64,000 nucleotides of DNA from Buchnera aphidicola (Uroleucon sonchi). Its GTDB lineage: Bacteria; Pseudomonadota; Gammaproteobacteria; Enterobacterales; Enterobacteriaceae. Positions within the stretch are counted from its first letter, which is position 1; each line of letters starts with the position of its first letter. The notes beneath the pieces are model-generated. The model searched no databases, had not been told where the DNA came from, and was given only the letters and a program-made list of their open reading frames with translations. The stretch spans positions 186,001-250,000 of the forward strand of contig NZ_CP047588.1 in the NCBI RefSeq assembly GCF_011035165.1. The letters are read 5' to 3'. Of the stretch, positions 5,478-49,489 are shown piece after piece. The position numbers and the translations under genes were made by a program.

Positions 5478-6144
5478 ATGAAATCAAATTTATCGTGGAA
5501 AAATTTACTATTTCAAGAAAAAAAAAAAGTATTTTATTGATATTATTAAATTTCTCAAAATATCACGTTCACAGAAGACTATTTATCCTCATCAAAAAGA
5601 TATATTTAATGCATTTTCTTTAACAGATTTTAATGATATAAAAGTTGTTATTCTTGGACAAGATCCATATTTCTCTCCAAATCAAGCACATGGATTATCT
5701 TTTTCTGTTCCAAAATCTTCTAAGATTCCACCTTCTTTGAAAAATATATATAGAGAATTAAATAGTGATTTTAAAACACATGTTGTTTTTAAACACGGTT
5801 GTCTAATAAATTGGGCGAAGCAAGGTGTTTTTTTATTAAATACTATTTTAACAGTTGAATCAGGAAAACCAAAATCACATCATTCAATAGGATGGCATAT
5901 TTTTACTGATAAAGTGATTTCTATAATTAATCAATATAGAAGTTCTATTATTTTTTTATTATGGGGGAATGATGCACAAAAAAAATCTATTTTAATTGAT
6001 CCTGATAATCATTATATACTAAAAGCATCTCATCCTTCTCCTTTATCAGCACATCGTGGTTTTTTGGGATGTAAACATTTTTCTTTAACAAATAAAATTT
6101 TGTTAAAATGCAGTAAAGCACCAATTAATTGGTTTGCAATTTAA
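5478..6144 (+). CDS. ung: Uracil-DNA glycosylase, frameshifted at an A11 tract
   Basis: Base-excision repair enzyme removing uracil from DNA. Translation from the ATG at 5478 gives MKSNLSWKNLLFQEKKK and then a stop at 5538. The rest of the enzyme continues in the next frame from base 5530 (YFIDIIKFL...) to the stop at 6144. The switch falls in a run of eleven A (5518-5528); a run of 10 or 13 would restore one frame of about 221-222 residues (E. coli 229). The body is well preserved: GQDPY with the catalytic Asp, and HPSPLSAHRG with the catalytic His. The His after GQDPY in E. coli is Phe here. Intact flanks suggest a recent break, a sequencing error, or rescue by polymerase slippage. Confidence 0.88.
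5518..5528 (+). repeat. A11 homopolymer at the ung frameshift
   Basis: Eleven consecutive A on the coding strand of ung. The upstream frame (from 5478) and the downstream frame differ by one base precisely here. A slip of -1 or +2 restores the reading frame. Confidence 0.9.
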
Positions 6145-6193
6145 AATATTATTAAAATATTTTAAATTAAAAAATATTATTCATAATAAATAA

Positions 6194-6736
6194 TTAATTA
6201 TTTTTCGCAATAGTTACAAGAGCTTTACGTAATATTATTTTATTAAATGTTAATCCATGTTTTTTAATAGAAAGAATATGATTAGGTAGTATATTTGAAG
6301 ATGGTTCGATTAAAATAGCATTATGTAATTCAGGATTGAATATTTCATTTTTTTTACCTTCGATTTTTACGCCTAATTTATATAATATATTTAATAAAGA
6401 TTGTAATGTTAAATTAATTCCTTCTACTAGAGGAATATCTTTTTTTTCTAATGAATGAGATAACATTACAATATCTTCTAAAATATCTATAATTGGAATC
6501 ATTGTTTTTAAAAATTTTTCCAGCTCATATTGTTTAATATTTTTTATTTTTTCATATGTGTTTTTTTTTATATTCTCCATATTTGCTAATTTGCGTAATT
6601 TAATATCATTAATTTTATTTTTATTTTGCAATAATTGTAATTTTAAATCTTCTATTTTTTTATTGTTACATGTAATTATATTATTAATATTTTTTAATTG
6701 ATTTGTGGTGTTTTTTTTATTTAAATTATTATTCAT
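6194..6736 (-). CDS. grpE: GrpE nucleotide-exchange factor for DnaK
   Basis: Co-chaperone that releases ADP from DnaK. The protein is 180 residues (E. coli 197). A long Asn/Lys-rich helix covers about 1-100 and forms the dimer coiled coil. The beta-wing head follows, with the family signatures VEGINLTLQSLLNILYKLGV (about 104-123), FNPELHNAI and KHGLTFN...LRKALVTIAK. Sequence identity to E. coli is low in the coiled coil but clear in the head. Other Buchnera genomes carry two grpE copies; this one, in the position next to nadK as in E. coli, would be the second copy of that naming. It is divergent from nadK. Confidence 0.9.
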   Translation of the reverse strand: MNNNLNKKNTTNQLKNINNIITCNNKKIEDLKLQLLQNKNKINDIKLRKLANMENIKKNTYEKIKNIKQYELEKFLKTMIPIIDILEDIVMLSHSLEKKDIPLVEGINLTLQSLLNILYKLGVKIEGKKNEIFNPELHNAILIEPSSNILPNHILSIKKHGLTFNKIILRKALVTIAKNN

Positions 6737-6849
6737 ACAATTACCATTTTAAATATTCAGTATGAAGTTATTATAAGGTTTATAATTAATCTTTCAAGGT
6801 TATTTATTATAATATAAAATATATTATATTTTATTGGAATTTTTATGTA

Positions 6850-7728
6850 ATGAAGCAATATTTTAATTCTATCGGTATTGTTGGACGTCCACGTTATACT
6901 AGTGCATTAATTACTCATAAAAAATTATATACATGGTTAATAAAATATGGTTATGATGTTGTTATTGAATCTTCTATTGCTCAAGAATTAAGATTAGATA
7001 ATGCAAAAACAGCTACATTAGTTGAAATTGGACAATTGTGTGATTTAGCTATCATAATAGGAGGAGATGGTAATTTACTATGCGCAGCACGTATTTTATC
7101 ATTTTATAATATCAAAATTATTGGAATTAATCGAGGTAACTTAGGTTTTTTAACTGATTTAAATCCAGAAACTAGTCTTCAAAAACTCTCAGAAGTATTA
7201 TCTGGAGAATATTTTTTAGAAAATCGTTTTATATTAGATGTAAAAATTTGTAAAAAAAATATTGTCTCTAAAACTACTATAGCAATTAATGAAGCAGTAT
7301 TACATACACAAAAATTAGCTCATATGATAGAATTTGAAGTATATATTGATAATAAATTTTCTTTTGCTCAAAGGGCAGATGGATTAATCATTTCTACACC
7401 AACAGGGTCAACTGGTTATTCGCTTTCAGCTGGAGGCCCAATTATTGAAACATCTTTAGAAGCGATTGTATTAGTTCCAATGTTTCCACATACTTTATCT
7501 GCTCGTCCTGTAGTAATTCATAGTAATAGTGTTATTTGTTTAAAATTTTCTAATATTGAAAAAAACTTAAAAATTAGTTGCGATAGTCAAAATATTTTAA
7601 CGATCAAAAAAAATGAAAGTGTATTTATTCGTCGCAGTAGTTATTATTTAAATCTTATTCATCCTAAAAGTTATAATTATTTTCAAACATTAAATTCTAA
7701 ATTAAACTGGTCTAAAAAATTTTTTTAA
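6850..7728 (+). CDS. nadK: NAD kinase
   Basis: ATP-dependent phosphorylation of NAD to NADP, the only known route to NADP. The protein is 292 residues, the same length as E. coli NadK (ppnK, yfjB). The GGDGN phosphate-binding motif is at residues 71-75. The second conserved motif [15 protein letters not shown] follows at about 179-193, and the C-terminal domain retains the family sequence [11 protein letters not shown]. It lies next to grpE as in E. coli; recN and bamE, which follow there, are absent and the tmRNA gene comes next. Confidence 0.96.
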
Positions 7729-7906
7729 ATATTGAAATAAAATTTAATATACTGTTATTTTTAATTATGCTTACAATTATATTAGTATTTTATATTAAAT
7801 CATAAAAAAATATTTTTTATAAATTATTTAATATATTAAAATTTAAAATAATAATATATATTATAAAAATATATTTTTATACAATCATATTTCTATATAT
7901 TGTTTT

Positions 7907-8270
7907 TGGAGCTGGCGGGATTCGAACCCGCGTCCAAAATTTCGACGAATAAAGTACTACATGCTTAGTTTTTTATATAAATTTCATTATCTAATTTGAA
8001 AAAACGCATTTTAGATACATAGCTTGTAATATCATTTCCGTGTCACCGTCAAGCTTAATGCCCACGTTTTCTCTTTTTTATGACTTTCCTATGTTCTATT
8101 CCTAAAGAGGGAGGCTAAGAAGGAAAGGCTTTAAAACAGTTTTTTAAGCTGCTAAAGCGTATTTATTTTGATTATTTGCAGCTATTTTTTTACGGTTTTT
8201 TTCGAGGCAAACCGTTCCTCGGCATGCACTTTACTTTGTTGATAATTTTGTCAAATCCAAAAACAGCCCC
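7907..8270 (-). ncRNA. ssrA: tmRNA (transfer-messenger RNA)
   Basis: Rescues stalled ribosomes by trans-translation. The 5' end GGGGCTG (8270) pairs with AGCTCC near the 3' end to form the acceptor stem. The T arm GGGTTCGAATCCC is plain to see close to the 3' end. The terminal CCA is not encoded, because the bases after the discriminator A at 7907 are AAA. The tag frame, pseudoknot-like GC-richer blocks and overall length (about 364 bases) fit the family. It stands out from its neighbours by higher GC. Its partner gene smpB is not in this window. Confidence 0.96.
8144..8179 (-). other. tmRNA proteolysis-tag reading frame
   Basis: Inside ssrA, the resume codon GCA starts a reading frame encoding ANNQNKYALAA followed by TAA. 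The end YALAA is the degron recognised by ClpXP/ClpAP in enteric bacteria, where the E. coli tag is ANDENYALAA. The middle has been replaced by Asn/Gln/Lys, in line with the AT-rich codon bias of the window, and is one residue longer. Confidence 0.85.
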
Positions 8271-8283
8271 GTGTACAATATTT

Positions 8284-8312
8284 AGTATTGCAAAAAAAAA
8301 TATTTTTGTCTA
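8284..8312 (-). promoter_or_regulatory. Sigma-70-like promoter of ssrA
   Basis: Read on the minus strand, a -35 like TAGACA (8307-8312) is followed after exactly 17 bases by AATACT (8284-8289). The mature tmRNA starts 14 bases further on, which leaves room for a short 5' leader to be cut by RNase P, as in E. coli. Confidence 0.55.
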
Positions 8313-8395
8313 TTAATTATTATATTTTTAAAAAAATTTTTATATAATATTTTTATAAAATATATATTATATAATTTTATAAAATGGAAATAAAT

Positions 8396-8716
8396 ATGAA
8401 TGTTATTGAAAAAATTCAAAATCAAATTAAAAATAATATAATTTTGATTTATATGAAAGGCACACCTCAATCTCCTAGCTGTGGTTTCTCTGCTCAAGCA
8501 GTACAAGCTTTATCTGCGTGTGGTCAAAAATTTGCTTATATTGATGTATTAGAAAATGAAGATATTAGAAATGCATTACCAAAATATGCTAATTGGCCAA
8601 CATTTCCTCAATTATGGATTGACGGAGAATTAATTGGTGGTTGTAGCATCATACTAGAAATGCTAGAAAATGGTACATTAAAAAAATTAATATCAAAAAA
8701 AATGAAAGATATATAG
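8396..8716 (+). CDS. grxD: Monothiol glutaredoxin (CGFS type)
   Basis: Monothiol glutaredoxin that carries and transfers [2Fe-2S] clusters. The protein is 106 residues from this start. The active-site motif CGFS lies at about residues 28-31 in PSCGFSAQAVQAL, and the glutathione-binding stretches WPTFPQLW and GGCSI follow. I chose the ATG at 8396 (MNVIEKIQ, aligned with the E. coli MSTTIEKIQ start, with a GGA 9 bases before it) over the in-frame ATG at 8384, which would add four residues. It is divergent from ssrA and convergent with rnt. It may work with ErpA, which is also encoded in this window. Confidence 0.95.
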   Translation: MNVIEKIQNQIKNNIILIYMKGTPQSPSCGFSAQAVQALSACGQKFAYIDVLENEDIRNALPKYANWPTFPQLWIDGELIGGCSIILEMLENGTLKKLISKKMKDI

Positions 8717-8766
8717 AATTATCTCAAGTAGTATTTATTTTAATATATAGCAATATATAAATAATC

Positions 8767-8826
8767 AAGATATGACATTAAATAAAAATTTTATATTTTA
8801 AATTTTAATTACTAATGTCATATCTT
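8767..8826 (+). terminator. Terminator between convergent grxD and rnt
   Basis: Perfect 14-base inverted repeat AAGATATGACATTA (8767-8780) and TAATGTCATATCTT (8813-8826) with a 32-base AT-rich loop. It is followed on the plus strand by TTTATTC. It sits midway between the two converging stop codons and could serve both. Confidence 0.65.
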
Positions 8827-8848
8827 TTTATTCACATATCATATGTTA

Positions 8849-9496
8849 TTATTTTTTGATTAAATGAATAGGCCATCCACCTAACCGTTTCCAACGATTA
8901 ACTAATTCACAAAAAAGATTAGCAGTTTGTAAAGTATCATATAATGCAGAATGTGCTTGATTATTATCAAATGATAATCCAATAGCTTTACAAGCTTTAG
9001 CTAATACCGTTTGACCTACTACTAAACCACTTAATGACGCTGTATCAAATGTTGCAAATGGATGAAAAGGATTATTTTTTATGTTTGATCTATTAATAGC
9101 AGCCATTAAAAAATTATGATCAAAATTCGCATTATGCGCTACAACAATTCCTCGACTACATCCTGCTATTTTAATTCCTTCATTGACTATATCAAATATA
9201 GATTGAATAGCTTGTTTTTCAGTAATAGCGCCACGTAATGGATTAAATGGATCAATTTTATTAAAAGCTATTGCATCAGAGTTAATAATAGATCCTTCAA
9301 ATGGTTTAATATGAAAATGTGATGTATTTTCTTTATGTAACCATCCTAAATTATCCATTTTTAACGTAATCATTGCAATTTCTAATACTGCATCAGTATT
9401 AGCATTAAATCCTGCAGTTTCAATATCGATAACAACTGGATAAAATGTACGAAATCGATTACTTAATAAATTGAATGCTTGAGTTGTAGACATCAA
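8849..9496 (-). CDS. rnt: Ribonuclease T
   Basis: 3'-to-5' exoribonuclease of the DnaQ/DEDD family that trims tRNA and other stable RNA 3' ends. The protein is 215 residues, the same as in E. coli. The Exo I motif is [11 protein letters not shown] (about 21-31), Exo II is [12 protein letters not shown] (about 118-129) and Exo III is [16 protein letters not shown] (about 182-197), giving the expected Asp-Glu-Asp-His-Asp set. The C-terminal GGWP is also conserved. It is likely needed for tRNA maturation in a genome that has lost several other ribonucleases. Confidence 0.96.
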
Positions 9497-9703
9497 AATC
9501 TCATTTTTAAAACATTTAGTGTTTGATATAATTATTTTTTATACATTTACGATTATATTTTTAAGACTTTAAAAAAATATATATTATGATTATAATAAAA
9601 TATTTTATAAGTGTACTATAATTTACAAAAATATTTAATCGTTAATTCAATACTTTTATAAAATTGAATAACAATTCAATTACAATCATAATGGAAAAAT
9701 AAA

Positions 9704-10315
9704 ATGAGTTATGTTCTTCCTGCTTTACCGTATTCATATAATGCATTAGAACCTTTTTTTGATGAAAAAACCATGAAAATTCATCATACCAAACATCATC
9801 AAAACTACATCAATAATACTAATGCTATTTTAGAAAATACAACTTTTTCTTCTTTATCTATTGATGAATTAATTTCTATTTTTAATGAAATTATTTTAGA
9901 TAATAAAAATACATTACGTAATAACGCTGGTGGACATATTAATCATTGTTTTTTTTGGGAAAGTTTAAAAATTGGAACTGTTGTAACTAAGACATTTAAA
10001 CTAGAAATAGAAAAACAATTTAATACTTTTGAAGATTTTAAAAAACAGTTTGAATCAGCTGCTCTTAATCATTTTGGGTCTGGATGGGTATGGTTAGTTA
10101 ATCAAAATGGTGTATTATCTATAGTTTCTACTATTAATCAAGATACTCCATTAATGGGGGAAAAAATATCTAATACTTATGGAAATCCTATTATTGGTTT
10201 AGATTTATGGGAACATGCATATTATTTAAAATATCAAAATAGACGATTAGATTATATTAAGGCTTTTTGGAATGTGGTTAATTGGGAAAGAGCATCTGAT
10301 TTATTAGAACAATAA
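9704..10315 (+). CDS. sodA: Superoxide dismutase [Mn]
   Basis: Dismutates superoxide to hydrogen peroxide and oxygen; the peroxide could then be removed by the AhpC of this window. The protein is 203 residues (E. coli SodA 206). Metal ligands are visible: His27 in KIHHTKHH, the second His in [10 protein letters not shown], and Asp and His in DLWEHAYYL. The sequence NNAGGH next to the second ligand fits the Mn-type. Codon usage matches the surroundings. It is a single-gene unit with a strong terminator downstream. Confidence 0.95.
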
Positions 10316-10384
10316 TTAATTTATTTTAATATAAAATTAATTTTTTATATTTTTAAATTTAATGTAAATTAATATATATTTTTC

Positions 10385-10420
10385 TTAAAAAACATATAAT
10401 GTATATTATATGTTTTTTAA
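10385..10420 (+). terminator. sodA terminator
   Basis: Perfect 16-base inverted repeat TTAAAAAACATATAAT / ATTATATGTTTTTTAA around the tetraloop GTAT. The T6 run inside the 3' arm gives the U tract. It lies 70 bases after the sodA stop. Confidence 0.8.
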
Positions 10421-10475
10421 TGTATTTCAAACATATAGTAAATTATATAATTATTTATAAATTAAAGGATTTTTT

Positions 10476-11024
10476 TTGAGTCATATTAAAATGATAGTAG
10501 GATTATCTAATCCCAAAAAACAATATCATAATACACGTCATAATGTTGGTTCGTGGTATATTTATTCTTTAGCTAAATATTATTCACAGAATTTAAAAAA
10601 AGAAGATAAATTTTTTGGTTTTACTTCTGTTGGTAAAATAAAATCATATTATATTCGTTTGCTGATACCAAATATTTTTATGAATATCAATGGTCATTCT
10701 ATATTTAAAATGGCATCATTTTATAATCTTCATTTAAATGAAATTTTAATAGTACATGATGATTTAGAATTAGCTCCAGGTACTATAAAATTCAAATATA
10801 GTTATGGTCATAATGGACACAATGGACTAAGAAATATTATTAATACTTTTAATAAAAAAATAAATTTTGCTCGCTTTCGAATTGGAATTGGTCGTCCAAA
10901 AGATAGAAAAAAAGTAGCTGAGTTTGTTTTATCTAAGCCGATACGAGAAGAGATAATTTTAATTCAGCAATCAATTGAAAATGCTATAAAACAAGAATTT
11001 TTAATCGATTATCTAATAATATAA
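10476..11024 (+). CDS. pth: Peptidyl-tRNA hydrolase
   Basis: Releases peptides from prematurely dropped peptidyl-tRNA. The protein is 182 residues (E. coli 194; the last ten or so are missing). It has a TTG start (10476) giving [13 protein letters not shown], aligned with E. coli MTIKLIVGLANP. AAAGGA ends 6 bases before the TTG, whereas the next ATG (10491) would cut into the first beta strand. The catalytic His is in NTRHNVG (about 22), with substrate-binding residues in [15 protein letters not shown] and GHNGL. It runs with ychF downstream, 36 bases apart, the same pairing as in E. coli. Confidence 0.94.
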
Positions 11025-11060
11025 TTTAATAATATTTTGTATTTTGAAGGCATATAAAAT

Positions 11061-12149
11061 ATGGGTTTTAAATGTGGTATTATCGGTTTACCTAATGTTG
11101 GTAAATCAACTTTATTTAATATTTTAACAAAAGGTAATTCAGCAATTGCTAATTTTCCATTTTGTACTATTAAACCAAATATAGGAATTGTCGCAGTTTT
11201 TGATAAACGTATTAATAATCTTGCTAAAGTTATTCAGCCAAAAAAAATAATTAATGCTTCTATAGAATTTATCGATATTGCCGGTTTAGTAAAAGGAGCT
11301 TCTCAAGGAGAAGGATTAGGAAATCAATTTTTAAATAATATAAGAGAAACACACGCTTTAGCGCATGTTGTACGTTGTTTTAAAAACGATAATATTACTC
11401 ATGTATATAATAAAATTAATCCTATTGAAGATATAGATACTATTAATACTGAGCTAATATTAGCTGATTTTGATGTATGTGAAAATACAATATTACAATT
11501 AAAAAAAAAAACTATATTCCAAAGTAAGAATATAGATCAAAAAATATATATTTTACAAAAATGTCTGAAACATTTAAAAAGTTTCTCAATGTTAAAGACA
11601 TTAGATTTAAATCAAGATGAAAAAAAAATGATTCATCATTTACGTTTTTTAACTATTAAACCTACTATGTATATTGCTAATATTAATGAAGAAAAAGAAT
11701 CTAAATATTTTTTAAATAAACTATATGAAAGAGCAAATAAAGAACAATCTACAGTAATTCCAATTCATGCACATCTAGAATTAGACTTAGTAAATATGAA
11801 TACTGATGAACAAAAATCTTTTATGAAAGCTTATAATATTCAAACATTAAGCTTAAAAAATATTATCTCTTCTGGATATAAACTATTAAATTTAATTACT
11901 TTTTTTACTGCCGGTAAAAAAGAAATTCGCGCATGGCCAATTTTAAATGGATCAACTAGTATTCAAGCAGCGCATAAAATACATAGTGATTTTAGTAAAG
12001 GATTTATTAGAGCTCAAATTATTAAATATGTAGATTTTATAAAATATAAAAATGAAAATAAAATTAAAGAAATAGGAAAATTTAAAATAGAAGGTAAAGA
12101 ATATCAGATTAAAGATGGTGATATTATTCATTTTTTATTTAATATTTAA
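11061..12149 (+). CDS. ychF: Ribosome-binding ATPase YchF (OBG family)
   Basis: Conserved P-loop ATPase that binds ribosomes. The protein is 362 residues (E. coli 363). The G1 motif GLPNVGKS is at residues 9-16, the G3 region DIAGLVKGAS follows, a coiled-coil insertion lies at about 130-200, and a TGS domain is at the C-terminus, with FFTAGKKEIRAW marking its entry. A run of eleven A (11501-11511) inside LQLKKKT is in frame here. Retained almost universally, its exact function is not settled in the family. Confidence 0.96.
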   Translation: MGFKCGIIGLPNVGKSTLFNILTKGNSAIANFPFCTIKPNIGIVAVFDKRINNLAKVIQPKKIINASIEFIDIAGLVKGASQGEGLGNQFLNNIRETHALAHVVRCFKNDNITHVYNKINPIEDIDTINTELILADFDVCENTILQLKKKTIFQSKNIDQKIYILQKCLKHLKSFSMLKTLDLNQDEKKMIHHLRFLTIKPTMYIANINEEKESKYFLNKLYERANKEQSTVIPIHAHLELDLVNMNTDEQKSFMKAYNIQTLSLKNIISSGYKLLNLITFFTAGKKEIRAWPILNGSTSIQAAHKIHSDFSKGFIRAQIIKYVDFIKYKNENKIKEIGKFKIEGKEYQIKDGDIIHFLFNI

Positions 12150-12189
12150 AAATTATTAATATTTAAAATACGTATATAATATTATTTTT

Positions 12190-12220
12190 AGAGAGGAAAA
12201 TATTTCTTTTTATCCTCTCT
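12190..12220. terminator. Hairpin between convergent ychF and thrC
   Basis: Eight-base perfect arms AGAGAGGA and TCCTCTCT around a 15-base loop, placed between two converging stop codons. No clear T run follows on either strand, so it may stop the polymerase only weakly or protect the 3' ends. Confidence 0.5.
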
Positions 12221-12228
12221 ATATTATA

Positions 12229-13518: not shown

Positions 13519-13521
13519 TTT

Positions 13522-14451: not shown

Positions 14452-14470
14452 TAATATTGTCCTAATATTT

Positions 14471-16921: not shown

Positions 16922-16949
16922 ATTTTATCATTCCTTATATTTTTATCAT

Positions 16950-16984
16950 AAAAACCCGCTTTCTAATATGAGCAAGTAGTTTTT
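16950..16984 (-). promoter_or_regulatory. Possible remnant of the thr operon attenuator hairpin
   Basis: Read on the minus strand, AAAAACTACTT and AAGCGGGTTTTT can pair over about ten bases with two single-base bulges, ending in T5 just 29 bases before the thrA ATG. The position and the GCGGGTTTTT end recall the E. coli thr attenuator. Upstream (about 17010-17035) one minus-strand frame reads ILITITN without a good start codon. The stem is weak, so this may be a decayed attenuator rather than a working one. Confidence 0.3.
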
Positions 16985-17424
16985 AAAAAAATAATCTGAG
17001 CCTACATCATGATTAGTTATAGTAATTAGGATAGCTATTCTAGTGAAGAGGTTATGAATAGATATTAATATTGTTTTATTACAACATAAAAGTTTTTTAA
17101 TTTATTCATAGTATTTTTGATAAAAATTTTATATGTAGTAGAAATATTTTTTAGCAATAATAATTTTTATTACAGAAAAAATATTATATAAATTATATTT
17201 TCAGAAATATAGAATATATATATTTGAATATTTAAAAAATTTTTATTAGTTAAATAATTTTTATAACATAATGATCATGATTACTGCAATAGTTAAAAAT
17301 AGAAATGTTTAATTTTTAATTATAAAAACATTTTTTTTAAAAAATTGTATATTTTTAATAGACATAAGTATATTATTGAAAATTTTCATACATCATTATT
17401 GATGCTAAACATTTATTTAATATT
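16985..17424. other. Intergenic region between thrA and hpt
   Basis: Divergent promoter region of the thr operon and hpt. No reading frame of note. The first 70 bases, on the thrA side, are less AT-rich than the rest and hold a near-palindrome AGGATAGCTATTCT around 17029-17042. The remainder is A/T with no repeat or RNA gene that I can recognise. Confidence 0.6.
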
Positions 17425-18447: not shown

Positions 18448-18906
18448 TTAACCAGTCATTTGTTTTTCTCTAATTTCTGCTAATGTTTTACAATCAATAC
18501 AAAGATTAGCTGTTGGTCTTGCTTCTAAGCGACGAATACCAATTTCAATACCACAAGAATCACAATAACCAAAATTTTTTTCTTGAATTTTTTTTAAAGT
18601 TTTTTCAATTTTTTTAATTAATTTACGACTTCTATCACGATTTCGTAAATCTAAACTAAATTCTTCTTCTTGTGTTGCTCTATCAATTGGATCAGGGAAA
18701 TTAGTAGCTTTATCTTGCATATAGAATAAAGTATGATCAATTTCTTTTTGTAATTGATTTTTCCATGTTTGAAGAATTTTATCAAAATGCAGCATTTGAT
18801 CTTCATTCATATATTGTTCATTATTTTTTTTTTGGTAAGGCTTTAAACCCGCAATAGCTAGAACATTTAAAGATGATGTTTGTTTTTTATTTTTTTTTTT
18901 TTTCAT
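18448..18906 (-). CDS. dksA: RNA polymerase-binding transcription factor DksA
   Basis: Binds the RNA polymerase secondary channel and works with ppGpp. The protein is 152 residues (E. coli 151). The coiled-coil tip keeps DPIDRA with the two acidic residues needed for activity. The zinc finger has all four cysteines (CDSCG and CIDC). The N-terminus is [12 protein letters not shown], encoded by ATG followed by a run of fourteen A, in frame as read here. A transcript slip at this tract would put every later codon out of frame. It is divergent from truA. Confidence 0.96.
18890..18903 (-). repeat. A14 homopolymer directly after the dksA start codon
   Basis: Fourteen A on the coding strand immediately after ATG, encoding four lysines and part of an asparagine codon. 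The gene is in frame as sequenced. Confidence 0.9.
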
Positions 18907-20082: not shown

Positions 20083-22367
20083 ATGCAAAATTTTATAAAA
20101 AAAAAAAAATAAGCAAAATATTTTTTTTTATTTTTTGTATAATTATTTTTTATGGAGTTTATTTGTATATTAAAATTCATCAGTTAATTCATGGAAAAGT
20201 ATGGGATTTTCCTAATTCAATATATACGCGTATAATTAATTTAGAACCAGGGAATATATATTCTCAAGAGGAAGTTTTAAATATTTTAAAAAATACAATG
20301 TACAGAAAAGTAGATCATGTTATGTCATCTGGAGAGTATAGTGTAAAAGGTAATGTTATAGAATTAATACGACGTTCTTTTAATTTTCCTGATCTTAAAG
20401 AAGAAGAATGTGACATTAAATTATTTTTTAAAGAAAATATTTTAAAAAAAATTATCAATGTTAAAAATGGTCATAATTTTCTTTTTATGCGTTTAGAACC
20501 TAAATTAATTGCTATGTTAAATACTCCTAAAAAAGAAAAACGTATTTTTTTACCTCGTAATAAATTTCCAGAAATATTAGTGAAAACACTAATATCTATT
20601 GAAGACAAACACTTTTATGAACACCATGGTATATATTTATCTTCTATAGTTCGAGCATTTTTAGCTAATATAACAGCTGGACATGTAATTCAAGGGGGTA
20701 GTACTTTAACTCAGCAGTTAATAAAAAATTTATTTTTAACTAATGAACGTTCAATTTTAAGAAAAATAAACGAAATATATATGGCTTTAATTTTAGACTA
20801 TTTTTATGAAAAAGATCGTATTTTAGAATTATATTTAAATGAAGTATATTTAGGTCAAGATGGTGATGAGCAAATTAGAGGATTTCCATTAGCAAGTATT
20901 TATTATTTTGGACGTCCAATCAATGAATTGACTTTAGATCAATATGCATTATTAGTAGGTATGGTAAAAGGAGCTTCTTTATATAATCCTTGGAATCACC
21001 CTATATCTGCTTTAAAACGAAGAAATTTAGTTTTATTATTATTATATAATCAAAAATATATCACGAAAGATGTTTATCTTAATTTATCTCATAAACCTTT
21101 AAATATTCAACCTAAAAGTAATATTTTTTCACATTATCCACATTTCATACACTTAGTATCTGAAGAATTTCAAAAAAATATTAAACATTCTGTTAATACA
21201 TTTTCAGGTATAAAAATTTTTACTACTCTTGATTCTATTTCACAAAATGCATTAGAAAAAGCTGTACAAATAGAAGTGTCTATATTAAAAAAACAAAAAA
21301 AACTAAAAAATTTAGAAGTTGCAACAATAGTAATTGATAAATTTACTGGTGAAGTTCAAGCTTTAATGGGTAGTGCAAACCCAAAAGTTAATCATTATAA
21401 TTATATTTTACATACTCGTCGTGAAATTGGTTCATTATCAAATATGATAACTTATTTAACTGCTTTATCACAACCTAATAAATATCATTTAAATACTTGG
21501 ATTTCTAATTCTCCAATTTTTATAAAATTAAATAATGGTAAATCTTGGGTACCAACAAATAATCAATTTTATTATAATAGAAAAATAATGTTATTAGATT
21601 CTTTTATCTATTCAATGAATAATTCAACAGAAAATATTAGTATAGATATAGGTTTGAAAAAATTAGTTGACCATTGGTTACGATTAGGAATTGACAAACA
21701 TCAAATGACTACCATTTCGCCTCTCTCGTTAGGAGATATGAATTTAACACCTATTGAAATAGCTCAAGTTTTTCAAATTATTGCTAATAATGGTCATAAA
21801 AAATCGCTAATATCAATTAAATCAGTTTTTTTTGATCGGAATAAAATATTTTATCATACTACACCTCAATTAAAAGATATAGAATCCCCTGAAGCTTCTT
21901 ATCTTATATTATATGCTATGCAAAAAGCATTCAATCATGGATCAGTTCAATTTTTAGGAAATAAGTTTAAAAATTTTTCTTTAGCAGGGAAAATTGGAAC
22001 TACAAAAAACTTTGCTAATAATTGGTTTATTGGAATTGATGGAAAACAAGTTGTAATTATTTGGATGGGTCAAGATAATAATAAAAGTAATAATTCATTT
22101 GATAATTCAGGTGCTATTCAAATTTATAAAAGATATCTTCAGTATAAATCACCAACTCCATTAGTCTTAATACCTCCAAAAAATATAAATATTTTTTATG
22201 TTGATAAATTAGGACGATTATCTTGCAAAAAAGATGATCAACATAATCAAATATTACCTATATGGAATTTGAAAAATAAACAGAATAATAATTCTAATGA
22301 AGAATTTCCATGTTATATAATAAAAAAGAAAAAAAATATTTTATCTTGGTGGAAAAGTTTATTTTAA
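20083..22367 (+). CDS. mrcB: Penicillin-binding protein 1b, frameshifted at A13 and with a degraded transpeptidase site
   Basis: Class A PBP. The ATG at 20083 has AAGGA ending 7 bases upstream but reaches a stop at 20110 after MQNFIKKKK. The protein continues in the next frame through a membrane helix (IFFFIFCIIIFYGVYLYIK) to 22367. The switch lies in thirteen A (20097-20109); +1 or -2 gives about 761 residues (E. coli 844, longer cytoplasmic tail). A UB2H-like region follows. The glycosyltransferase domain is intact: IEDKHFYEHHG, GGSTLTQQL, RKINEIYMAL. In the transpeptidase domain, SxxK reads SLSN (21432-21443) and KTG reads KIG (21990-21998); SMN is kept. A TTG at 20163 would lack most of the membrane anchor. 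I infer a glycan polymerase without cross-linking activity. Confidence 0.9.
20097..20109 (+). repeat. A13 homopolymer at the mrcB frameshift
   Basis: Thirteen A on the coding strand, just before the membrane helix of MrcB. Fourteen or eleven A would join the ATG to the long downstream frame. Confidence 0.9.
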
Positions 22368-26114: not shown

Positions 26115-27160
26115 ATGCGAATTAAATAAGATATTAAATGAGGTTTTAAAGATTTTTTAATTTTGTCAAACATTCTACGCTAAATATTCGTTCTCAAGTT
26201 GATCTGATTTATAATTTTTTTTAAATTTTCTTCATATATTTGATTGGGTATTCTTATTATTGCATCGAATATAGATATAATAAGTATATTTAACATGATA
26301 AAATCTTGATCAACATTTAACATATTAGCAGCTATATATAAATATCGTTTTTTAAAAATTGGAAAAATTTTATTAATATATCTTTAAAAAGTATATTAAA
26401 TTATGTAGTTCTTTCTATAAGAATATCTAACGAAGATTTTCAAAATTAAAAATATTTTTTTATTGTCTAAAAAGATAAGATATATTTATATTAAGATTGT
26501 TAATATATATCTTGATTATGCTATTACTTTATTACAATTAATTAGAAAATTTGTTCATAAACAAAATTATTTGATCTAGCAATATTTTTACTAGAGAAAT
26601 AGTTTAAGAATTAATATTATTTTTTTTGCAAATATAATTAAAGTTATTATTGGTTAAAAATCAGTATGTACTACACTTATTAAAACTGGATTTAGCGTAT
26701 CCTTAGATTTTTCTGCGAATATTAAATATTCTGATACCATTCATATATTAAGTAATTATATTATTATTCTAATATGATCTATACTATATCTGGAGATATC
26801 ACTAAAGATTTTTAGAGGAAGATCTGACTTTTTTATATTTAGAAAATACTTTCTAGTTATAAAAATGTTCTACAACAATTATTCAGACAAATCAAAGAAA
26901 GATATATGTTATTTTTTTTAAAATAAGTTCAAAATCTTCAATGAAGATATATCATGGAAAAATTTTAAGAAGATATCGTGTATTTGAAGGAAAAATTGTT
27001 AAAATATCGTTTTGTGGATATGTTAAGCATACAATTCGTAACATTTTAGGAGAATTACATTTTGTGTGTACTGATATTGAATCAGAAAAGCTAAAAGATC
27101 AACAAAAAAATAATATCTATAGGAGTAACTAAACAAAAAAATTGTATTTTTAATATTATA
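26115..27160 (+). pseudogene. guaC: GMP reductase pseudogene
   Basis: Scattered remains of guaC in order along the plus strand, broken by many stops and frameshifts. The start reads MRI then DIK and GFKD around internal stops, with NIRSQVDL close behind, aligned with E. coli MRIEEDLKLGFKD and KSRSDVEL. Near 26670 the catalytic-cysteine loop KSVCTTLIKTG is still legible (E. coli GSVCTTRVKTG), followed by FSANIKYSD. From 26941 a frame gives YRVFEGKIVKISFCGYVKHT and ILGEL, matching E. coli [20 protein letters not shown] and ILGGL, and the last codons near 27160 match the C-terminus IFNNL. The gene cannot make an enzyme. Confidence 0.88.
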
Positions 27161-43527: not shown

Positions 43528-44600
43528 TAACATACCTTTAATGAAATAAGTCCTATAAGCACGAAAATGAATGATATAATCCAAACTCTAACAATAATTA
43601 AAGGTTCTAATATACCTTTTTCTTCATAGTGATGATGAATTGGAGCCATTTTAAACATTCTTTTTTTTCTTATTTTAAAAGATAGTATTTGTAATATTAC
43701 TGAAATAGCTTCACACACAAAAATACCACCCATAATAACCAGTAATAATTGTTGATGTAATAAAATTGCTATTGTTCCTAAAACACCCCCTAAAGATAAT
43801 GATCCTACATCTCCCATAAAAATTTTAGCTGGATAACTATTAAACCATAGAAAACCTAAGCCTGATCCAATTATTGCAGAACATAATATAGCTAATTCAC
43901 TTGAGTCTTTTACATAAGCAATATTTAAATAATTAGAGTTATTTATGTTATCACTAAACAAAGATATTAATGCAAAACCAGATATTGCAAAAATAACAGG
44001 CATAATAGCTAACCCATCTAATCCATCTGTTAAATTAACCGCATTACTGGTTCCAACGATGACAAAATAAGAAAGAAAAATATATAAATAATATACTTCA
44101 AAAGTATTTTTTATATGAAACGGGATAATTAATTGAGTAAAAAAAATGTTTGGAGTATTATATTGTATAATATATATTAAAAATATAGCATAAATAGACA
44201 TCCAAAAATATTTCCATATTAATTTTAATCCTTGACTATTTTTATGTTTAATTTTTTTATAATCATCTATAAAACCTATTATCCCATATGTTATTAAAAT
44301 GCTTATAATTAACCAAATATCTATATTTGATAGATTGCAATATATCATTGTGGAAAAAAATATAGAAAAAATAATAATTATTCCACCCATAGTTGGTATA
44401 TTTTGTTTTAAATAATGTTTTTTAGGACCATTATGACGAATTATTTGAAATTTTTTATATTTTTCTAAAAAACATATTAAATACGGCATCATATATAAAC
44501 TAATAAAAAAAGACGTTAACAAGCTAAGTATCATACGATACGGAATATAAAAAATTATATTCATATTTAAAAATAAGTATTTATTTAAAAATATTAACAT
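43527..44600 (-). CDS. mraY: Phospho-N-acetylmuramoyl-pentapeptide transferase
   Basis: Integral membrane enzyme making lipid I on undecaprenyl phosphate. The protein is 357 residues (E. coli 360), with ten hydrophobic segments. Catalytic Asp pair in GFIDDYKK (about 112-119), NLTDGLDGLAIMP near 196, FMGDVGSLSLGG near 264 and APIHHHYE near 321 are all present. It overlaps the murF stop by seven bases. The carrier lipid is provided by UppS, also encoded here. Confidence 0.97.
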   Translation of the reverse strand: MLIFLNKYLFLNMNIIFYIPYRMILSLLTSFFISLYMMPYLICFLEKYKKFQIIRHNGPKKHYLKQNIPTMGGIIIIFSIFFSTMIYCNLSNIDIWLIISILITYGIIGFIDDYKKIKHKNSQGLKLIWKYFWMSIYAIFLIYIIQYNTPNIFFTQLIIPFHIKNTFEVYYLYIFLSYFVIVGTSNAVNLTDGLDGLAIMPVIFAISGFALISLFSDNINNSNYLNIAYVKDSSELAILCSAIIGSGLGFLWFNSYPAKIFMGDVGSLSLGGVLGTIAILLHQQLLLVIMGGIFVCEAISVILQILSFKIRKKRMFKMAPIHHHYEEKGILEPLIIVRVWIISFIFVLIGLISLKVC

Positions 44601-45957
44601 TTTTTGCTCTCTTGGATAATATGTTCTACTACTTCTTCCATTTTTGTCTTACGAGATCCTTTTACTAATATTGTAATTGTTGTTTTTTTTAAGATATAAT
44701 CGTGTAATTTATTATTTAGATCTGTTTTACTCATAAAATGCTCTCCATTATCAAATATTTTAGTAATTTCATGGCTAATTTCTCCTACACTAAAAATTTT
44801 ATGAATTTTAGATAAATTAGCATGATTTCCTATCATGCGATGATATAATCGACTATTTTTACCTAATTCAGCCATATCTCCAGTTACTAATATTTTATAA
44901 CCAGGCATTTTTTCTAATACTTTGATTGCTGTAATCATAGATGCAACATTAGAATTATAAGTATCATTAATTAAAATTTTATTTGAATCTAACATTATAG
45001 TTTCTAGTCTGTTTGATAACTTAGGAGTATTTAATAGTCCTATTTTAATTGTTTGCAAAGGTATTTGAAGAGCAAAAGATAGAGCGCTAGCAGCTAATGC
45101 ATTAGATATATTCTGATAGCCTAAGAAAGGTAGAGAAATATTTATTTCTCCATTAGGGGTGTGCATTAAGAAAGATGTACCATGTATATTGGTATTAATA
45201 TTACTAGAAAAAAAATTACTATATTTTTTTTTTTAATAGAAAAATATATAATATTATTGTTAATAATATTTTTTTTCCATTTTGATAAATGGTGACTATC
45301 TAAATTAATAACTACTGTACCATTAGGTCTTAGACCTGAAAAAATTTCTGATTTTGCTTGAGATACTCCTAGCAATGATTTAAAACCTTGTAAATGAGCA
45401 TATTGAATATTATTAATTAATATAATTTCTGGTTGACTCATATTACTAATATATGAAATTTCACTTGGTTTGTTAGCTCCTAGCTCAATGACAGCATATT
45501 TATGTGAATGATTTAACTGCAATAATGTTAAAGGAACGCCTATATTATTGTTAAAATTACCGATAGTAGATATGGTATTGCCATTCTGTCTTAATATAGA
45601 AGCTGTCATTTCTTTTACTGAAGTTTTTCCACAAGAACCAGTAATAGCTAATATTTTGGCATTCGTTTGTTTACGAACCCAAGCTGCAATTTGACCTAAA
45701 GCAAGAGATGTATTTTGAACAATAATATATGAAATATGACATTGAATATGTTTTTGTGTGACTATTGCAGCACAACCTTTTTCTATTGCATCTTTTATAA
45801 AAATATGAGCATCGAAATTTTTCCCGATTAAAACAATAAATAAACAATTTTTAATAATTTTTCTACTATCGATTATAATATTATCTATAAGTAAATCTTT
45901 TCCACAAAGTTGTCCATTAGTAATCATAGCTATAGTTTTTAAGGATATAGAAATCAT
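44594..45957 (-). CDS. murF: UDP-MurNAc-tripeptide--D-Ala-D-Ala ligase, frameshifted at an A11 tract
   Basis: Adds D-Ala-D-Ala to the UDP-MurNAc tripeptide. Residues 1-241 are read from 45957, with P-loop ITGSCGKTSVKEM near 110 and ELGANKPSEISYI. After YFSIKKK the frame runs into a stop. The enzyme resumes in another frame as YSNFFSSNINTNIHGTSF and continues through FLGYQNISNALAA, NDTYNSNVASM and TILVKGSRKTKMEEVV to 44594. The switch is in eleven A (45234-45224); twelve or nine would restore about 454 residues (E. coli 452). The step is essential for the pentapeptide and no second murF is seen, so I infer slippage rescue, recoding or a sequencing error rather than loss. Confidence 0.92.
45224..45234 (-). 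repeat. A11 homopolymer at the murF frameshift
   Basis: Eleven A on the coding strand. The two halves of murF differ by one base exactly here. One more A, or two fewer, joins them with no other change. Confidence 0.92.
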
Positions 45958-47456
45958 ATATTTTTTTCCAATAGATTTAATACGGTTTTTTGATCTGAAT
46001 AAATAATAGATTTATTTCGAATGATTTGTGTTGTTTCGTGTCCTTTTCCTGCTATAAAAATTATATGATTATATTTTGCTTTAAAATAAGCATAAGATAT
46101 TGCTTTTTTTCTATTTCGAATAATGATGATTTTTTCTTTTTTTTGACAACCACTTAAAATATCTTGAATAATTACTGTTTCTTTTTCATGTCTAGGATTA
46201 TCATTAGTAATAATTACTTGATTTGATATATTTTCTGCGATATTTCCCATAATAGATCGTTTAGTTTTATCTTTTTCACCTCCACATCCAAATATGCACC
46301 ATATATATTTTTTATAATGTAAGCGAATTGCATTTAGTGTTTTTTTTAAGGCATCTGGTGTATGAGCATAATCAATAATAAAAATTGGTTTATTTTTTTT
46401 AGTGAATATTTGCATTCGACCACTGATCGGTTTTATTTTTTTAGATAAATTAATTATATCTGATAAATTATGACCTAATTCTAAAAGAGCTGCTAATGAT
46501 AATAAAAGATTTGTGACATTAAAATCTCCAATTAAACAAGATGATATTTCTGCGTTTCCCCAACTAGATTCAAACGTAATATGAACATAATTATCAATAA
46601 GTGTAATTTGAGTCGCATTTAACCACTTTGTGGCATATTTTTTTTGACTAGAATCATTAATAGTAACTGCTACTGTATAAAAATTAAATAATTTTTTTAA
46701 CCATTTTTTTCCATATGGATCATCAGCATTTAATATGATTTTTTGCACTTGATGTGTACTAAATAATAACCATTTTGCTGATTCGTATTTTTCCATATTA
46801 TCATGATAATCTAAATGCTCTGGTGTTAGATTTGTAAATATCGCAATATAAAATGGAATAGATATAACACGATTTTGTGTTAAACTATGTGAAGATACTT
46901 CCATTGTAACTAATTTAGCTTTTTTTTTTAATGCTATAGATAAAAAAGAGTGAATTATAATTGCAGAAGATGTAGTATTTTTTGTTGGATATAAAGAATT
47001 GTGAAAACCGTTCCCTAAAGTGCCCATAGTTGCAGTTTTATTACCTAATAAATAACTCCATTGATTGATTAGTTGCGTTACAGTAGTTTTTCCATTGGTT
47101 CCAGTCACTCCTATAATTGTTAATTTTTTTTCTGGCTGATCATAAAAACGACTCGCTAATTTTGATATATTTTTAGATAGATCAAAAAATTTTATTATAG
47201 GTATTTGATTAATATATTTATATATTCCATGTTCTATTTTGTTATCAGTATTATATAAAATAGCTGATACTTGTTTTTTAATCACTTGATAAATAAAATT
47301 ACGCCCATCTTGTTTAACACCTGGAACAGCTATAAATAACTCTCCTTTAATTGATTGTCTACTATCCATATTTAAAGTTAAAATATTTTTTTTTGGAGCA
47401 TATTTGATCCATGGAGATAATAAATACTGTAAACACGTTTTTTTTATTAATTGCAT
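45954..47456 (-). CDS. murE: UDP-MurNAc-L-Ala-D-Glu--meso-diaminopimelate ligase
   Basis: Adds meso-diaminopimelate to the peptide. From the ATG at 47456 (MQLIKKTCL), one base past the ftsI stop, the protein is 500 residues (E. coli 495); an in-frame ATG at 47477 lies inside ftsI. GVTGTNGKTTVTQL is the P-loop near 113, MEVSSHSL is kept, and DDNPRHE is the diaminopimelate-specific motif near 410. An in-frame A10 run (46920-46929) encodes LKKKA. The stop overlaps murF by ATGA. dapD in this window feeds diaminopimelate to it. Confidence 0.96.
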   Translation of the reverse strand: MQLIKKTCLQYLLSPWIKYAPKKNILTLNMDSRQSIKGELFIAVPGVKQDGRNFIYQVIKKQVSAILYNTDNKIEHGIYKYINQIPIIKFFDLSKNISKLASRFYDQPEKKLTIIGVTGTNGKTTVTQLINQWSYLLGNKTATMGTLGNGFHNSLYPTKNTTSSAIIIHSFLSIALKKKAKLVTMEVSSHSLTQNRVISIPFYIAIFTNLTPEHLDYHDNMEKYESAKWLLFSTHQVQKIILNADDPYGKKWLKKLFNFYTVAVTINDSSQKKYATKWLNATQITLIDNYVHITFESSWGNAEISSCLIGDFNVTNLLLSLAALLELGHNLSDIINLSKKIKPISGRMQIFTKKNKPIFIIDYAHTPDALKKTLNAIRLHYKKYIWCIFGCGGEKDKTKRSIMGNIAENISNQVIITNDNPRHEKETVIIQDILSGCQKKEKIIIIRNRKKAISYAYFKAKYNHIIFIAGKGHETTQIIRNKSIIYSDQKTVLNLLEKNI

Positions 47457-47457
47457 A

Positions 47458-49194
47458 TTATTTAATTTTTTCAACATGATGATTTAACAAATTATCAGGT
47501 GCTATATTCATAGTTTTAAATATTAAAGTCATGATTTGACTAAAAACTGGAGCAGAAACTGAACCTCCGTAATATTTTCCTTCTTTTGGATTATCTATCA
47601 TAATTACTAATGAAAACATAGGACGACTAACTGGTGCTATACCTGCAGTATATGCTATATATTTTTTTACATAATGTCCGTTTTTATCAATTTTTTTTGC
47701 TGTTCCTGTTTTAATAGCAACTCGGTATCCTTTTACTGCAGCTTTTATACCTGATCCTCCAGATTGCGAAACACTTTCCATCATATTAATTACTTTATTT
47801 ACATATATTTCAGGAAAAACTCTAATTCCAGGTATTATTTTATCAACTTTAAGAATTGAAAGAGGTCGATATATTCCACCACTACCAATTGTTGCATATA
47901 ATCGTGTTAGCTGAAGTGGAGTAACCATTAATCCATACCCAAATGAAAAAGTAGCTTTATCTAAATCAGACCAATTTTTTTTTTTAGGTAAAAAACCGTT
48001 TTGTTCACCAACTAATCCTAATTGAGTAGGTTGTCCTAAGCCAAAATTTATATAACTATTAACTAGCTGTGTTGTAGGAATTAATAATGCAATTTTTGAT
48101 ATACCTACATTGCTAGATTTTTTCAAAATACCAGTAATTGATAGTTTTTCGTAATATGAAATATCTTTAATTTGATGTTTATTAATTACAAATGGTTTAG
48201 TTTTAATAATAGAATTTTCTTGAATAATACCTAATCTTAATGCTTCCATAATAACTATAGGCTTAACTGTTGATCCTGGTTCAAACATGTCAGTAATTGC
48301 TCTATTACGAATATTTTTTTTAACTATATGATGCATATTATTAGGATTATATGAAGGGAAATTTGCCATAGCTAAAATTTCTCCTGTTTTAATACTTATC
48401 AAAATTGCAGTTCCAGAATTGGCATTATTTTTTTCAACAGCTTTATGTAATGCATGATATACAATTGTTTGTAATTTTTTATCAATACTTAATGTTACAT
48501 TATTAGATATATTTTTTTCAACTAAAGGTATACTTTCAATAATATGTCCATTTGTATCTTTTCTTATTTTTCTTTTACCTGGTTTTCCTGTCAAAAGAGT
48601 ATTAAAACTTTTTTCAACACCTTCAATTCCTATGCCATCAATATTAGTAAATCCTATTAGTTGGGCTGCAATTTTACCAGAAGGATAATATCTTTTTGAT
48701 TCTTCTAATAAAAATATTCCAGGTAAATTTAATTTTTTAATATATTCTCCAACTTCAGGAGTTACTTGTCTAGCTAAATAAATAAATTTAGACATTTTAT
48801 GATTATTAATATTTGATAATATCGTTTGTAGCGGTATAGAAAGGATATCAGATAAAGCTTGCCAACGATGATTATTATTAATATTATTAATATTAATAAT
48901 TTCTGATGGATTAGCACAAATCGCATTAACTGATATTGTAACTGCTAAAGGATATCCTGATCGATCTTTAATAATTCCTCTAGTATTCAATAAAGATTGT
49001 GTTCTGGATGTTCTAAGGTCACCTTCTCGTATTAGTTGATCTGAATTAATTACTTGTAAAAAGATAATTCGTATAGTTAAAACAAAAAAAGATAGAAAAA
49101 TAAAAATATATAATATAAAAAGACGCCAGTTTAAATAAGTATGTTTTTTTATTTTTTTTTCTTTAAAAAAAATGATTTTACTTTTTTTATACAT
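47458..49194 (-). CDS. ftsI: Penicillin-binding protein 3 (septal transpeptidase FtsI)
   Basis: Class B PBP cross-linking septal peptidoglycan with FtsW. The protein is 578 residues (E. coli 588). Short cytoplasmic tail and one membrane helix at about 24-48; pedestal domain to about 230. The transpeptidase domain has the active Ser308 and Lys311 in [11 protein letters not shown] near 359, and KTGT near 490, all intact. This contrasts with MrcB in the same window. An in-frame A11 tract (47975-47985) encodes PKKKN. It follows ftsL by 44 bases. Confidence 0.97.
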
Positions 49195-49238
49195 GTTTTA
49201 AATGATATCCATCAATTAAATTATTTATGAAAAAAATA

Positions 49239-49489
49239 TTATTTTTTTTTTGTAGAATGATTTGATAAAGCATTTTTTTCAATAATTAAATTCCTCCATT
49301 CATTATTTTTTTTTTTTTTTGTAAAATAAGTTCTTCTTCTTGAGAGACTAATAAACGGGTTTCATATACTGTAATAATTATCACAATAGAGGATAATAAA
49401 ATTGAGATTAATAAGATTAAATAAGTTTTTCCATACAATATAAAATCGTTTTTAATAATTTTTAGTAAATCATAACGTTGAATTGTCAT
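49239..49489 (-). CDS. ftsL: Cell division protein FtsL, frameshifted at an A15 tract
   Basis: Small bitopic membrane protein that, with FtsB and FtsQ, activates FtsW-FtsI. The ATG at 49489 opens [16 protein letters not shown], then a membrane helix (about 20-41) and [14 protein letters not shown]. After a run of fifteen A the frame is lost. One base further it resumes as [18 protein letters not shown], matching E. coli DIEWRNLILEENALGDHS. With sixteen A the spacing to E. coli is exact. The second frame stops at 49239 after an A10 run, giving about 83 residues (E. coli 121). The start overlaps rsmH by 20 bases. As written, only 67 residues would be made. Confidence 0.88.
49306..49320 (-). repeat. 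A15 homopolymer at the ftsL frameshift
   Basis: Fifteen A on the coding strand, the longest homopolymer I noticed in the window. Sixteen or thirteen A would restore the coiled-coil part of FtsL. Confidence 0.92.

What the first reader, a model, noticed from the sequence alone, without database searches (positions are those of the whole stretch)
5478..49489. Four genes broken by single frameshifts, all inside poly(A) tracts
ung (A11), mrcB (A13), murF (A11) and ftsL (A15) each have exactly one main frame switch, always inside a coding-strand run of A, with the expected protein intact on both sides. At least seven other genes carry in-frame runs: dksA A14; ychF, coaE, ddlB and ftsI A11; dapD and murE A10. 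Random decay would scatter stops, as in guaC. Published work on Buchnera and Blochmannia reported RNA-polymerase slippage at poly(A) that restores frames in a share of transcripts. Four cases in 64 kb, two in essential wall/division genes, suggest a genome living with slippage as routine decoding. The main rival is homopolymer sequencing error.
Basis: partly seen in the sequence, partly recalled or inferred. Interest (0 to 1): 0.78.

Follow-up and report, generated by a model that had tools for sequence, protein, structure and literature searches.

The report
Slippage-tolerated frameshifts in Buchnera wall genes
In this aphid symbiont, several cell-wall and division genes look broken by one missing A in a long run of A's, but relatives carry the same break and still conserve the whole protein, so the genes are most likely still read, which could also explain how symbionts thought to lack these genes still build walls.

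Summary
The window lies in a Buchnera aphidicola genome. murF (A11) and ftsL (A15) are split inside the gene; ung (A11) and mrcB (A13) change frame within about 20 and 10 codons of the start. Sequencing error is rejected for murF and ftsL: murF is split at about the same residue in 29 of 35 Buchnera genomes with murF, ftsL in 14 of 23. In eight pairs of out-of-frame species dN/dS after the murF tract is 0.09-0.35, within the range of intact genes, and constraint starts at the tract, against reinitiation.

Slippage rescue of frameshifted murF in Buchnera is already published. New here is a phase rule: interior frameshifts are mostly one base short (69 lineages against 2; 16 against 3 in added genomes). 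Accepted changes run 29:2 towards deletion from the in-frame state but 10:0 towards insertion from the -1 state, so a constant mutation bias fails. It matches RNA polymerase's insertion bias; ribosomal -1 slippage fits equally. ung and mutT break the rule.

It may resolve a 2022 paradox: the Rhopalosiphum maidis symbiont builds peptidoglycan while 'lacking' murC, murE and murF. In the genome of that length each carries one -1 poly(A) shift.

The parts
44594..45957 (-). murF in two frames: first ORF 45166-45957, second ORF 44594-45166
   Evidence: N part matches MurF profile positions 1-250/453, C part 265-453/453; one -1 shift, no stop; split in 29 of 35 genus genomes with murF
45224..45234 (-). 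coding-strand A11 tract in murF, phase -1
49239..49489 (-). ftsL in two frames; zero-frame ORF 49286-49489, conserved C-terminus continues in the other frame to a TAA at 49239
   Evidence: Pfam FtsL on the N part; frame change and conserved [14 protein letters not shown] C-terminus across relatives; end read from the sequence
49306..49320 (-). coding-strand A15 tract in ftsL, phase -1
20083..22367 (+). mrcB (PBP1B): ATG and A13 tract out of frame (-1) with the open body 20163-22367
   Evidence: profile match of the body; start analysis
20097..20109 (+). A13 tract at codons 5-9 counted from that ATG of mrcB
5478..6144 (+). ung: frame change at about codon 17; conserved UDG body downstream in the other frame
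5518..5528 (+). A11 tract in ung, phase +1
18890..18903 (-). in-frame A14 directly after the dksA start codon
38152..38162 (-). in-frame A11 in ddlB; the same tract is -1 out of frame in 6 of 23 genomes

Best explanation
These are live genes carrying ancient or recurrent single-base losses in coding-strand poly(A) tracts of 9 or more. DNA run length moves back and forth over evolutionary time, but inside needed genes two states are accepted almost exclusively: in frame, or one base short. The one-base-short state is tolerated because RNA polymerase often adds an extra A while copying such tracts, so part of the mRNA is in frame and makes full-length protein at reduced dose. Shown here: the breaks, their conservation, the phase bias, purifying selection downstream, and constraint starting at the tract itself. 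Taken from the literature: insertion-biased slippage in Buchnera and corrected transcripts of frameshifted Buchnera cell-wall genes. Inferred: that it happens in this strain. ung (and mutT) are a different class with little phase constraint, perhaps low-dose or alternatively started.
For: murF is split in 29 of 35 genomes with murF and -1 in 19 of 23 studied in detail, 0 plus; ftsL -1 in 14 of 23, 0 plus. Interior phases 69:2 by lineage, 29:2 by parsimony events; from in-frame 29 deletions:2 insertions, from -1 10 insertions:0 deletions, Fisher 6e-8. 12 added genomes: 16:3 over murF, ftsL, murE. dN/dS after the murF tract in the eight computed pairs in which both species are out of frame is 0.09-0.35, before it 0.10-0.26, intact genes 0.02-0.55; changes in the 30 codons after the tract fall 30:14:60 on positions 1:2:3 of the downstream frame (16:6:34 in five non-overlapping pairs). 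Incidence climbs steeply from A9 to A13. Published: 151 of 157 Buchnera transcription insertions but 16 of 57 deletions lie in homopolymers, insertions rising with run length (PMC5574713, passages and section 7).
Against: No RNA or protein data here. [quoted passage not shown] In the pair with this genome (G000-G002) murF dN/dS is about twice as high after the tract (0.35) as before it (0.18); the same holds against in-frame G016 (0.33 and 0.17). Plus-phase interior exceptions: priA G011 T12, apbE G018 A12, murF G051 A14, ftsL G048 A14, murE G046 A9; most ung and mutT breaks are plus. Under a mutation bias of 80% deletions the 29:2 count alone is only P = 0.04. The interior/terminal cut was set after seeing the cases. 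Ribosomal -1 slippage predicts the same phase.
Confidence: 0.74

Rival explanations
1. Ribosomal -1 frameshifting on the A tract (A AAA AAG or A AAA AAA), as in E. coli dnaX, rather than RNA-polymerase slippage, restores the frame.
For: Same predicted phase; in the A10G murF lineages (e.g. G015, G019, G022) the zero frame reads AAA AAA AAG, the classic slippery heptamer in phase (sequence). Two interior -1 shifts lie at shorter runs (murD G019 at T8, truA G010 at A4).
Against: No stimulatory structure: five folds around the murF, ftsL, mrcB and ung tracts have z between -0.94 and 0.93. The 69 interior -1 cases all have an A or T run of at least 9, but that was the filter; single shifts at A5-A8 are 22 of 25,697, though mutation supply also depends on length. 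Transcript correction is reported in the literature (quoted).
Confidence: 0.12
2. Homopolymer under-calling in the assemblies.
For: Length dependence and -1 excess are what under-calling would give; single-lineage cases cannot be cleared individually, including the exact ung and mrcB runs in this genome.
Against: Same murF break in 29 of 35 genomes; the A10G form of the tract is shared by six of the 23; ung is plus in 8 genomes in which murF is minus; genomes of exactly the published lengths of strains Ak, Ua and Sg show the murF break that Degnan et al. report for them, and Sg also the murE and mraY breaks, while the APS-length genome is intact in murF as reported.
Confidence: 0.05
3. Pseudogenes at an early stage, repeatedly and independently inactivated (the reading of Degnan et al. 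2011 for murF).
For: Parsimony alone allows recurrent events; mrcB does decay with several defects in 6 of 23 genomes; murF in this genome shows a somewhat higher dN/dS after the tract.
Against: One phase only in the 23 genomes, shared across clades with in-frame tips among them; dN/dS downstream far below 1; no second defect in 18 of the 19 split murF genes.
Confidence: 0.04
4. Two separate polypeptides by translational reinitiation (in this window the murF frames meet at a UAAUG).
For: Stop and start overlap by one base at 45166.
Against: The overlap position varies between species and the candidate ATG reads ATA in G004, G008, G013, G014 and G017; the 30 codons after the tract are constrained in the downstream frame (codon-position changes 16:6:34 in five non-overlapping pairs).
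Confidence: 0.03
5. Mixed run lengths among the many chromosome copies of one cell supply in-frame templates at the DNA level.
For: Buchnera is highly polyploid and shows within-strain single-base indel polymorphism (PMC3164680, passages).
Against: Would need the majority state to stay -1 in most lineages for long times; nothing here tests it.
Confidence: 0.02

Closest known systems
Transcriptional-slippage rescue of frameshifted endosymbiont genes at poly(A) tracts (Tamas et al. 2008; paper not held; murF and immunostaining recalled from its abstract, the rest quoted in PMC3164680, PMC5009743, PMC3017870)
   Same: Same genus, by recall the same gene (murF), same kind of tract, otherwise intact gene under purifying selection.
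   Different: Here shown across the genus with one dominant phase, plus ftsL, ddlB, murC, murE, mrcB; no transcript data of our own.
Annotation of Buchnera of Myzus persicae (PMC3890641, passages)
   Same: Reports genes split by indels in poly(A) tracts with both sides conserved, and merged the models.
   Different: No phase or genus-wide analysis in the passages seen.
Ancient maintained frameshifts in Blochmannia homopolymers (Wernegreen et al. 2010, not held; known from title and citations in PMC3017870 and PMC4389277)
   Same: Frameshift conserved between species by selection.
   Different: Other genus; phase symmetry not examined in anything I could read.
Convergent homopolymer inactivations in Buchnera (Degnan et al. 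2011, PMC3164680, passages)
   Same: Reports the murF frameshift in Ap-5A, Ap-Tuc7, Ak, Ua, Sg and murE, mraY in Sg.
   Different: Reads it as four independent inactivations, while allowing for slippage; the wider sample fits one old -1 state with reversions at least as well.
dnaX-type programmed -1 ribosomal frameshifting (recalled)
   Same: Phase, and an in-phase A AAA AAG in some lineages.
   Different: No stimulator found; long uninterrupted run in the counted cases.

Membership tests
Slippage-rescued poly(A) frameshift genes | Single indel inside a homopolymer of about 9 or more, gene otherwise intact | tested here: met
   murF, ftsL, ung single shift and no stop in this genome; mrcB only at the start
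Slippage-rescued poly(A) frameshift genes | Purifying selection on the protein after the tract in frameshifted lineages | tested here: met
   murF 0.09-0.35 in eight pairs of out-of-frame species, up to twice the upstream value in the pair with this genome; murC and murE 0.13-0.23 in G019-G022 and G015-G022; ung 0.13-0.38 over nine pairs regardless of frame state. ftsL too short for a firm ratio
Slippage-rescued poly(A) frameshift genes | Phase matching the polymerase's insertion bias | tested here: met
   interior 69:2 lineages, 16:3 in added genomes; NOT met by ung (4 minus, 9 plus) and mutT (1 minus, 5 plus)
Slippage-rescued poly(A) frameshift genes | Run-length heterogeneity in transcripts | not testable with these tools
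   no reads available; literature conflicting
Slippage-rescued poly(A) frameshift genes | Full-length protein made | not testable with these tools
   MurF immunostaining is recalled from the Tamas abstract, not seen here
Programmed -1 ribosomal frameshifting | Slippery heptamer in phase | tested here: met
   A AAA AAG in A10G murF lineages; A AAA AAA in this genome
Programmed -1 ribosomal frameshifting | Stimulatory downstream structure | tested here: not met
   z -0.94 to 0.93 in five folds
Pseudogene | Relaxed constraint and accumulating defects | tested here: not met
   murF, ftsL by defects only; met by guaC

The most novel reading that the evidence does not exclude
The polymerase's insertion bias acts as a genus-wide selective filter on DNA: inside needed genes, tract lengths wander almost only between 'in frame' and 'one short', and the disfavoured 'one long' state appears in very long tracts (12 or more, with one exception seen) or in tracts near gene ends and in the repair genes ung and mutT. 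The phase of a frameshift then helps tell a living gene from a dying one, and genes scored as lost in a Buchnera peptidoglycan survey (murF, murC, murE) are in fact expressed, which explains why the R. maidis symbiont still builds a wall.
Probability: 0.5. Interest if true: 0.75.

Novelty: new member of a known kind. Interest (0 to 1): 0.6.

Why it matters
Annotation pipelines that delete frameshifted genes misread the capabilities of AT-rich symbionts. A 2022 study scored murF, murC and/or murE as lost in Aphidini Buchnera after removing frameshifted CDS, found experimentally that the R. maidis symbiont makes peptidoglycan, and inferred compensatory mechanisms; its main text does not contain 'slippage'. 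The genome whose length equals the published R. maidis symbiont (642,929 bp) has those three genes with one -1 poly(A) shift each and no other defect in them; its ftsL (A10) and murD (T8) are also -1. A phase test needs only genome sequence and gives a quick prediction of which broken genes are alive.

Tried and rejected
Sequencing error and pseudogene readings were tested and rejected for murF and ftsL. Reinitiation was tested by codon-position changes after the tract and rejected. RNA structure as a ribosomal stimulator: nothing found. A search of genome contigs with murE gave one distant locus of no use. A constant deletion bias of mutation was tested by comparing accepted changes from the two states and rejected; the state tables were entered by hand.

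Rows dropped before counts: clusters that are antisense or spurious ORFs or whose representative starts too early (279 of 2422 alignments), then 29 alignments with several defects. One search entered 23 gene clusters, those in which a homopolymer shift had been seen, and only single shifts without stops at A/T runs of 9 or more (plus G014 murF, which has two). Left out by that filter: 30 single shifts at shorter runs, 28 of them within 25 residues of a gene end and two interior ones, both -1 (phases).

The mrcB case was first missed by the aligner because the shift lies in the first ten codons; it was then checked by start codons.
Full report
What the window is. The window is bases 186,001-250,000 of a one-contig, 614,349-bp genome. 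Relatives of the same genus have contig lengths that equal published Buchnera aphidicola chromosomes: 640,681 (APS Tokyo), 641,454 (Sg), 641,794 (Ak), 615,380 (Ua) in Degnan et al. 2011 Table 1 and 642,929 (R. maidis). The genus is therefore Buchnera; the host aphid of this genome is not known to me.

The observation. All four runs and the frame changes at ung, murF and ftsL are real. murF and ftsL are one base short, ung one base long. mrcB's body is a single open frame; the ATG just before the A13 is out of frame with it by one base. Gene names were checked by profiles. The in-frame runs in dksA, ychF, coaE, ddlB, ftsI, murE and dapD are present, and the 13 genic runs of 10 or more are all coding-strand A.

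How the comparison was done. I fetched the syntenic 56-60 kb from 22 relatives and, as a second sample, another 60-kb region from this genome and 19 relatives. ORFs were clustered, one representative per gene was aligned to every genome with a protein-to-DNA aligner that allows frame changes (1242 and 1180 alignments). As an outside check, it agrees with breaks that Degnan et al. report: murF in Ak, Ua and Sg, murE and mraY in Sg, murF intact in APS Tokyo.

Conservation. Counting this genome, murF is out of frame at one tract in 19 of 23, in frame in 4, never one base long; ftsL is out of frame in 14 of 23, in frame in 8, with one (G008) not alignable there. Over the genus, 36 genomes were searched: one has no murF match, 6 have murF in one frame, 29 have it split. 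On a midpoint-rooted tree from 21 clean proteins the murF split is spread over nearly all clades with four in-frame tips, so an old split with reversions is at least as parsimonious as repeated inactivation; Degnan et al. inferred four independent inactivations from a smaller sample.

Still coding. Of nine species pairs computed, eight have both species out of frame in murF. Their dN/dS after the tract is 0.09-0.35 and before it 0.10-0.26; the clean genes in the same pairs give 0.02-0.55. The highest value belongs to the pair with this genome (0.35 after, 0.18 before), so its C-terminal part evolves faster but is still far below neutral; the pairs share some species. In the 30 codons after the tract, which cover the overlap with the zero frame, changes fall 30:14:60 on positions 1:2:3 of the downstream frame over the eight pairs (16:6:34 in five non-overlapping ones), so that frame is read from the tract onward rather than from a later restart. 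The ftsL downstream part is too short for a firm ratio, but it is strongly conserved.

Length dependence. Single shifts per coding run: 22 of 25,697 for A5-A8, 0.8% at A9, 11% at A10, 27% at A11, 32% at A12, 40% at A13; T runs 1 of 212 at T9, 4 of 19 at T10, one each of one at T11 and T12. Of 30 single shifts at runs shorter than 9, 28 lie within 25 residues of a gene end, mostly start artefacts; the two interior ones are murD of G019 (T8) and truA of G010.

Phase rule. Counting single shifts at A or T runs of 9 or more in 23 gene clusters: interior sites 69 lineages one base short against 2 one base long; by parsimony 29 against 2 gains (P = 5e-7 for even odds; 0.0016 if 70% and 0.04 if 80% of mutations were deletions; 69% is the naive share in a directed-evolution library, PMC3812077, passages). 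From the in-frame state deletions outnumber insertions 29:2, but from the one-short state insertions outnumber deletions 10:0, which no constant mutation bias gives (Fisher 6e-8). Twelve further genomes taken afterwards: murF 9 minus, 1 plus, 2 in frame; ftsL 4, 1, 7; murE 3, 1, 8, so the rule is a strong bias, not absolute. Four of the five interior exceptions are in runs of 12 or more, where slippage should be broad; this was noticed after the fact. Terminal tracts differ: N-terminal sites 8 minus and 15 plus (ung 4 and 9, mutT 1 and 5, ftsI of G012 plus, three single minus cases), C-terminal 0 and 2; mrcB, counted apart, 8 minus and 7 in frame among 15 genomes with an intact body, though 4 of the 8 have another in-frame ATG. 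ung is still conserved after the tract (dN/dS 0.13-0.38), so it is not simply dead; low required dose, a rarer slippage product, or an alternative start are all open.

Mechanism. In Buchnera transcripts 151 of 157 insertions but only 16 of 57 deletions lie in homopolymers, and insertions rise with run length (PMC5574713, passages and section 7). That predicts the observed phase. The same paper says no frame-restoring transcription error was seen, while the review PMC5009743 (passages) cites Tamas et al. 2008 for 12-50% corrected transcripts and Degnan et al. cite it for Buchnera of R. padi; the Tamas paper is not held and its abstract is recalled. Ribosomal -1 slippage would leave the same genomic signature and is not excluded. 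No special RNA structure was found.

A published puzzle. PMC9116674 (sections 10 and 11 read whole, other passages) removed frameshifted CDS, scored murF, murC and/or murE as lost in Aphidini Buchnera, then showed that the R. maidis symbiont makes peptidoglycan. G019, whose contig length equals that symbiont's, has murF, murC and murE each with one -1 shift in an A10 tract and no other defect in them; its ftsL (A10) and murD (T8) are -1 too. G015 and G022 show the same triple, with mraY and ftsL respectively in addition. murC and murE downstream dN/dS in G019-G022 and G015-G022 is 0.13-0.23. Slippage rescue would remove the contradiction for the three genes; the T8 in murD is shorter than the tracts where slippage is expected and is unexplained. 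I saw no paper making this link in the listings of searches, none of which was aimed at it alone and which cover only open-licence papers.

Verdict. The finding is real and its mechanism is, in kind, already known for this genus. The new content is the genus-wide conservation, the phase rule, and a likely answer to the peptidoglycan puzzle.

Noticed in passing
window 26941-27132 and surroundings: guaC is a true decayed pseudogene here (11 shifts, 7 stops) and in sister G016 (2 shifts, 8 stops); no defect was called in the other 21 genomes.
   Followed up: partly
mrcB orthologues in G002, G012, G014, G015, G021, G024: mrcB has decayed with several defects in 6 of 23 genomes, scattered over the tree, and was not found as an intact gene in G011 and G023.
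   Followed up: partly
mutT cluster c59, e.g. L017:6307-6687: mutT breaks at an N-terminal A tract are mostly one base long (5 of 6), like ung, against the rule in other genes.
   Followed up: partly
L171 (G046): G046 murF carries two -1 tract shifts and murE one +1; either unusual decay or a poorer assembly.
   Followed up: no
G019 murD (residue 45): A single -1 shift at a T8 run, shorter than the other tracts, in the genome with the R. maidis symbiont's length.
   Followed up: no
second region, rsxA, rsxB, rsxC, rsxG clusters c51-c55 (e.g. L082, L085, L088): The rsx/rnf genes carry several -1 A or T tract shifts in relatives; no ORF of this genome joined those clusters.
   Followed up: partly
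G005: One same-genus genome has neither an ftsI nor a murF match.
   Followed up: no
window 18890-18903: dksA begins ATG followed directly by A14, in frame; any slippage at the very start of the message is untested.
   Followed up: no
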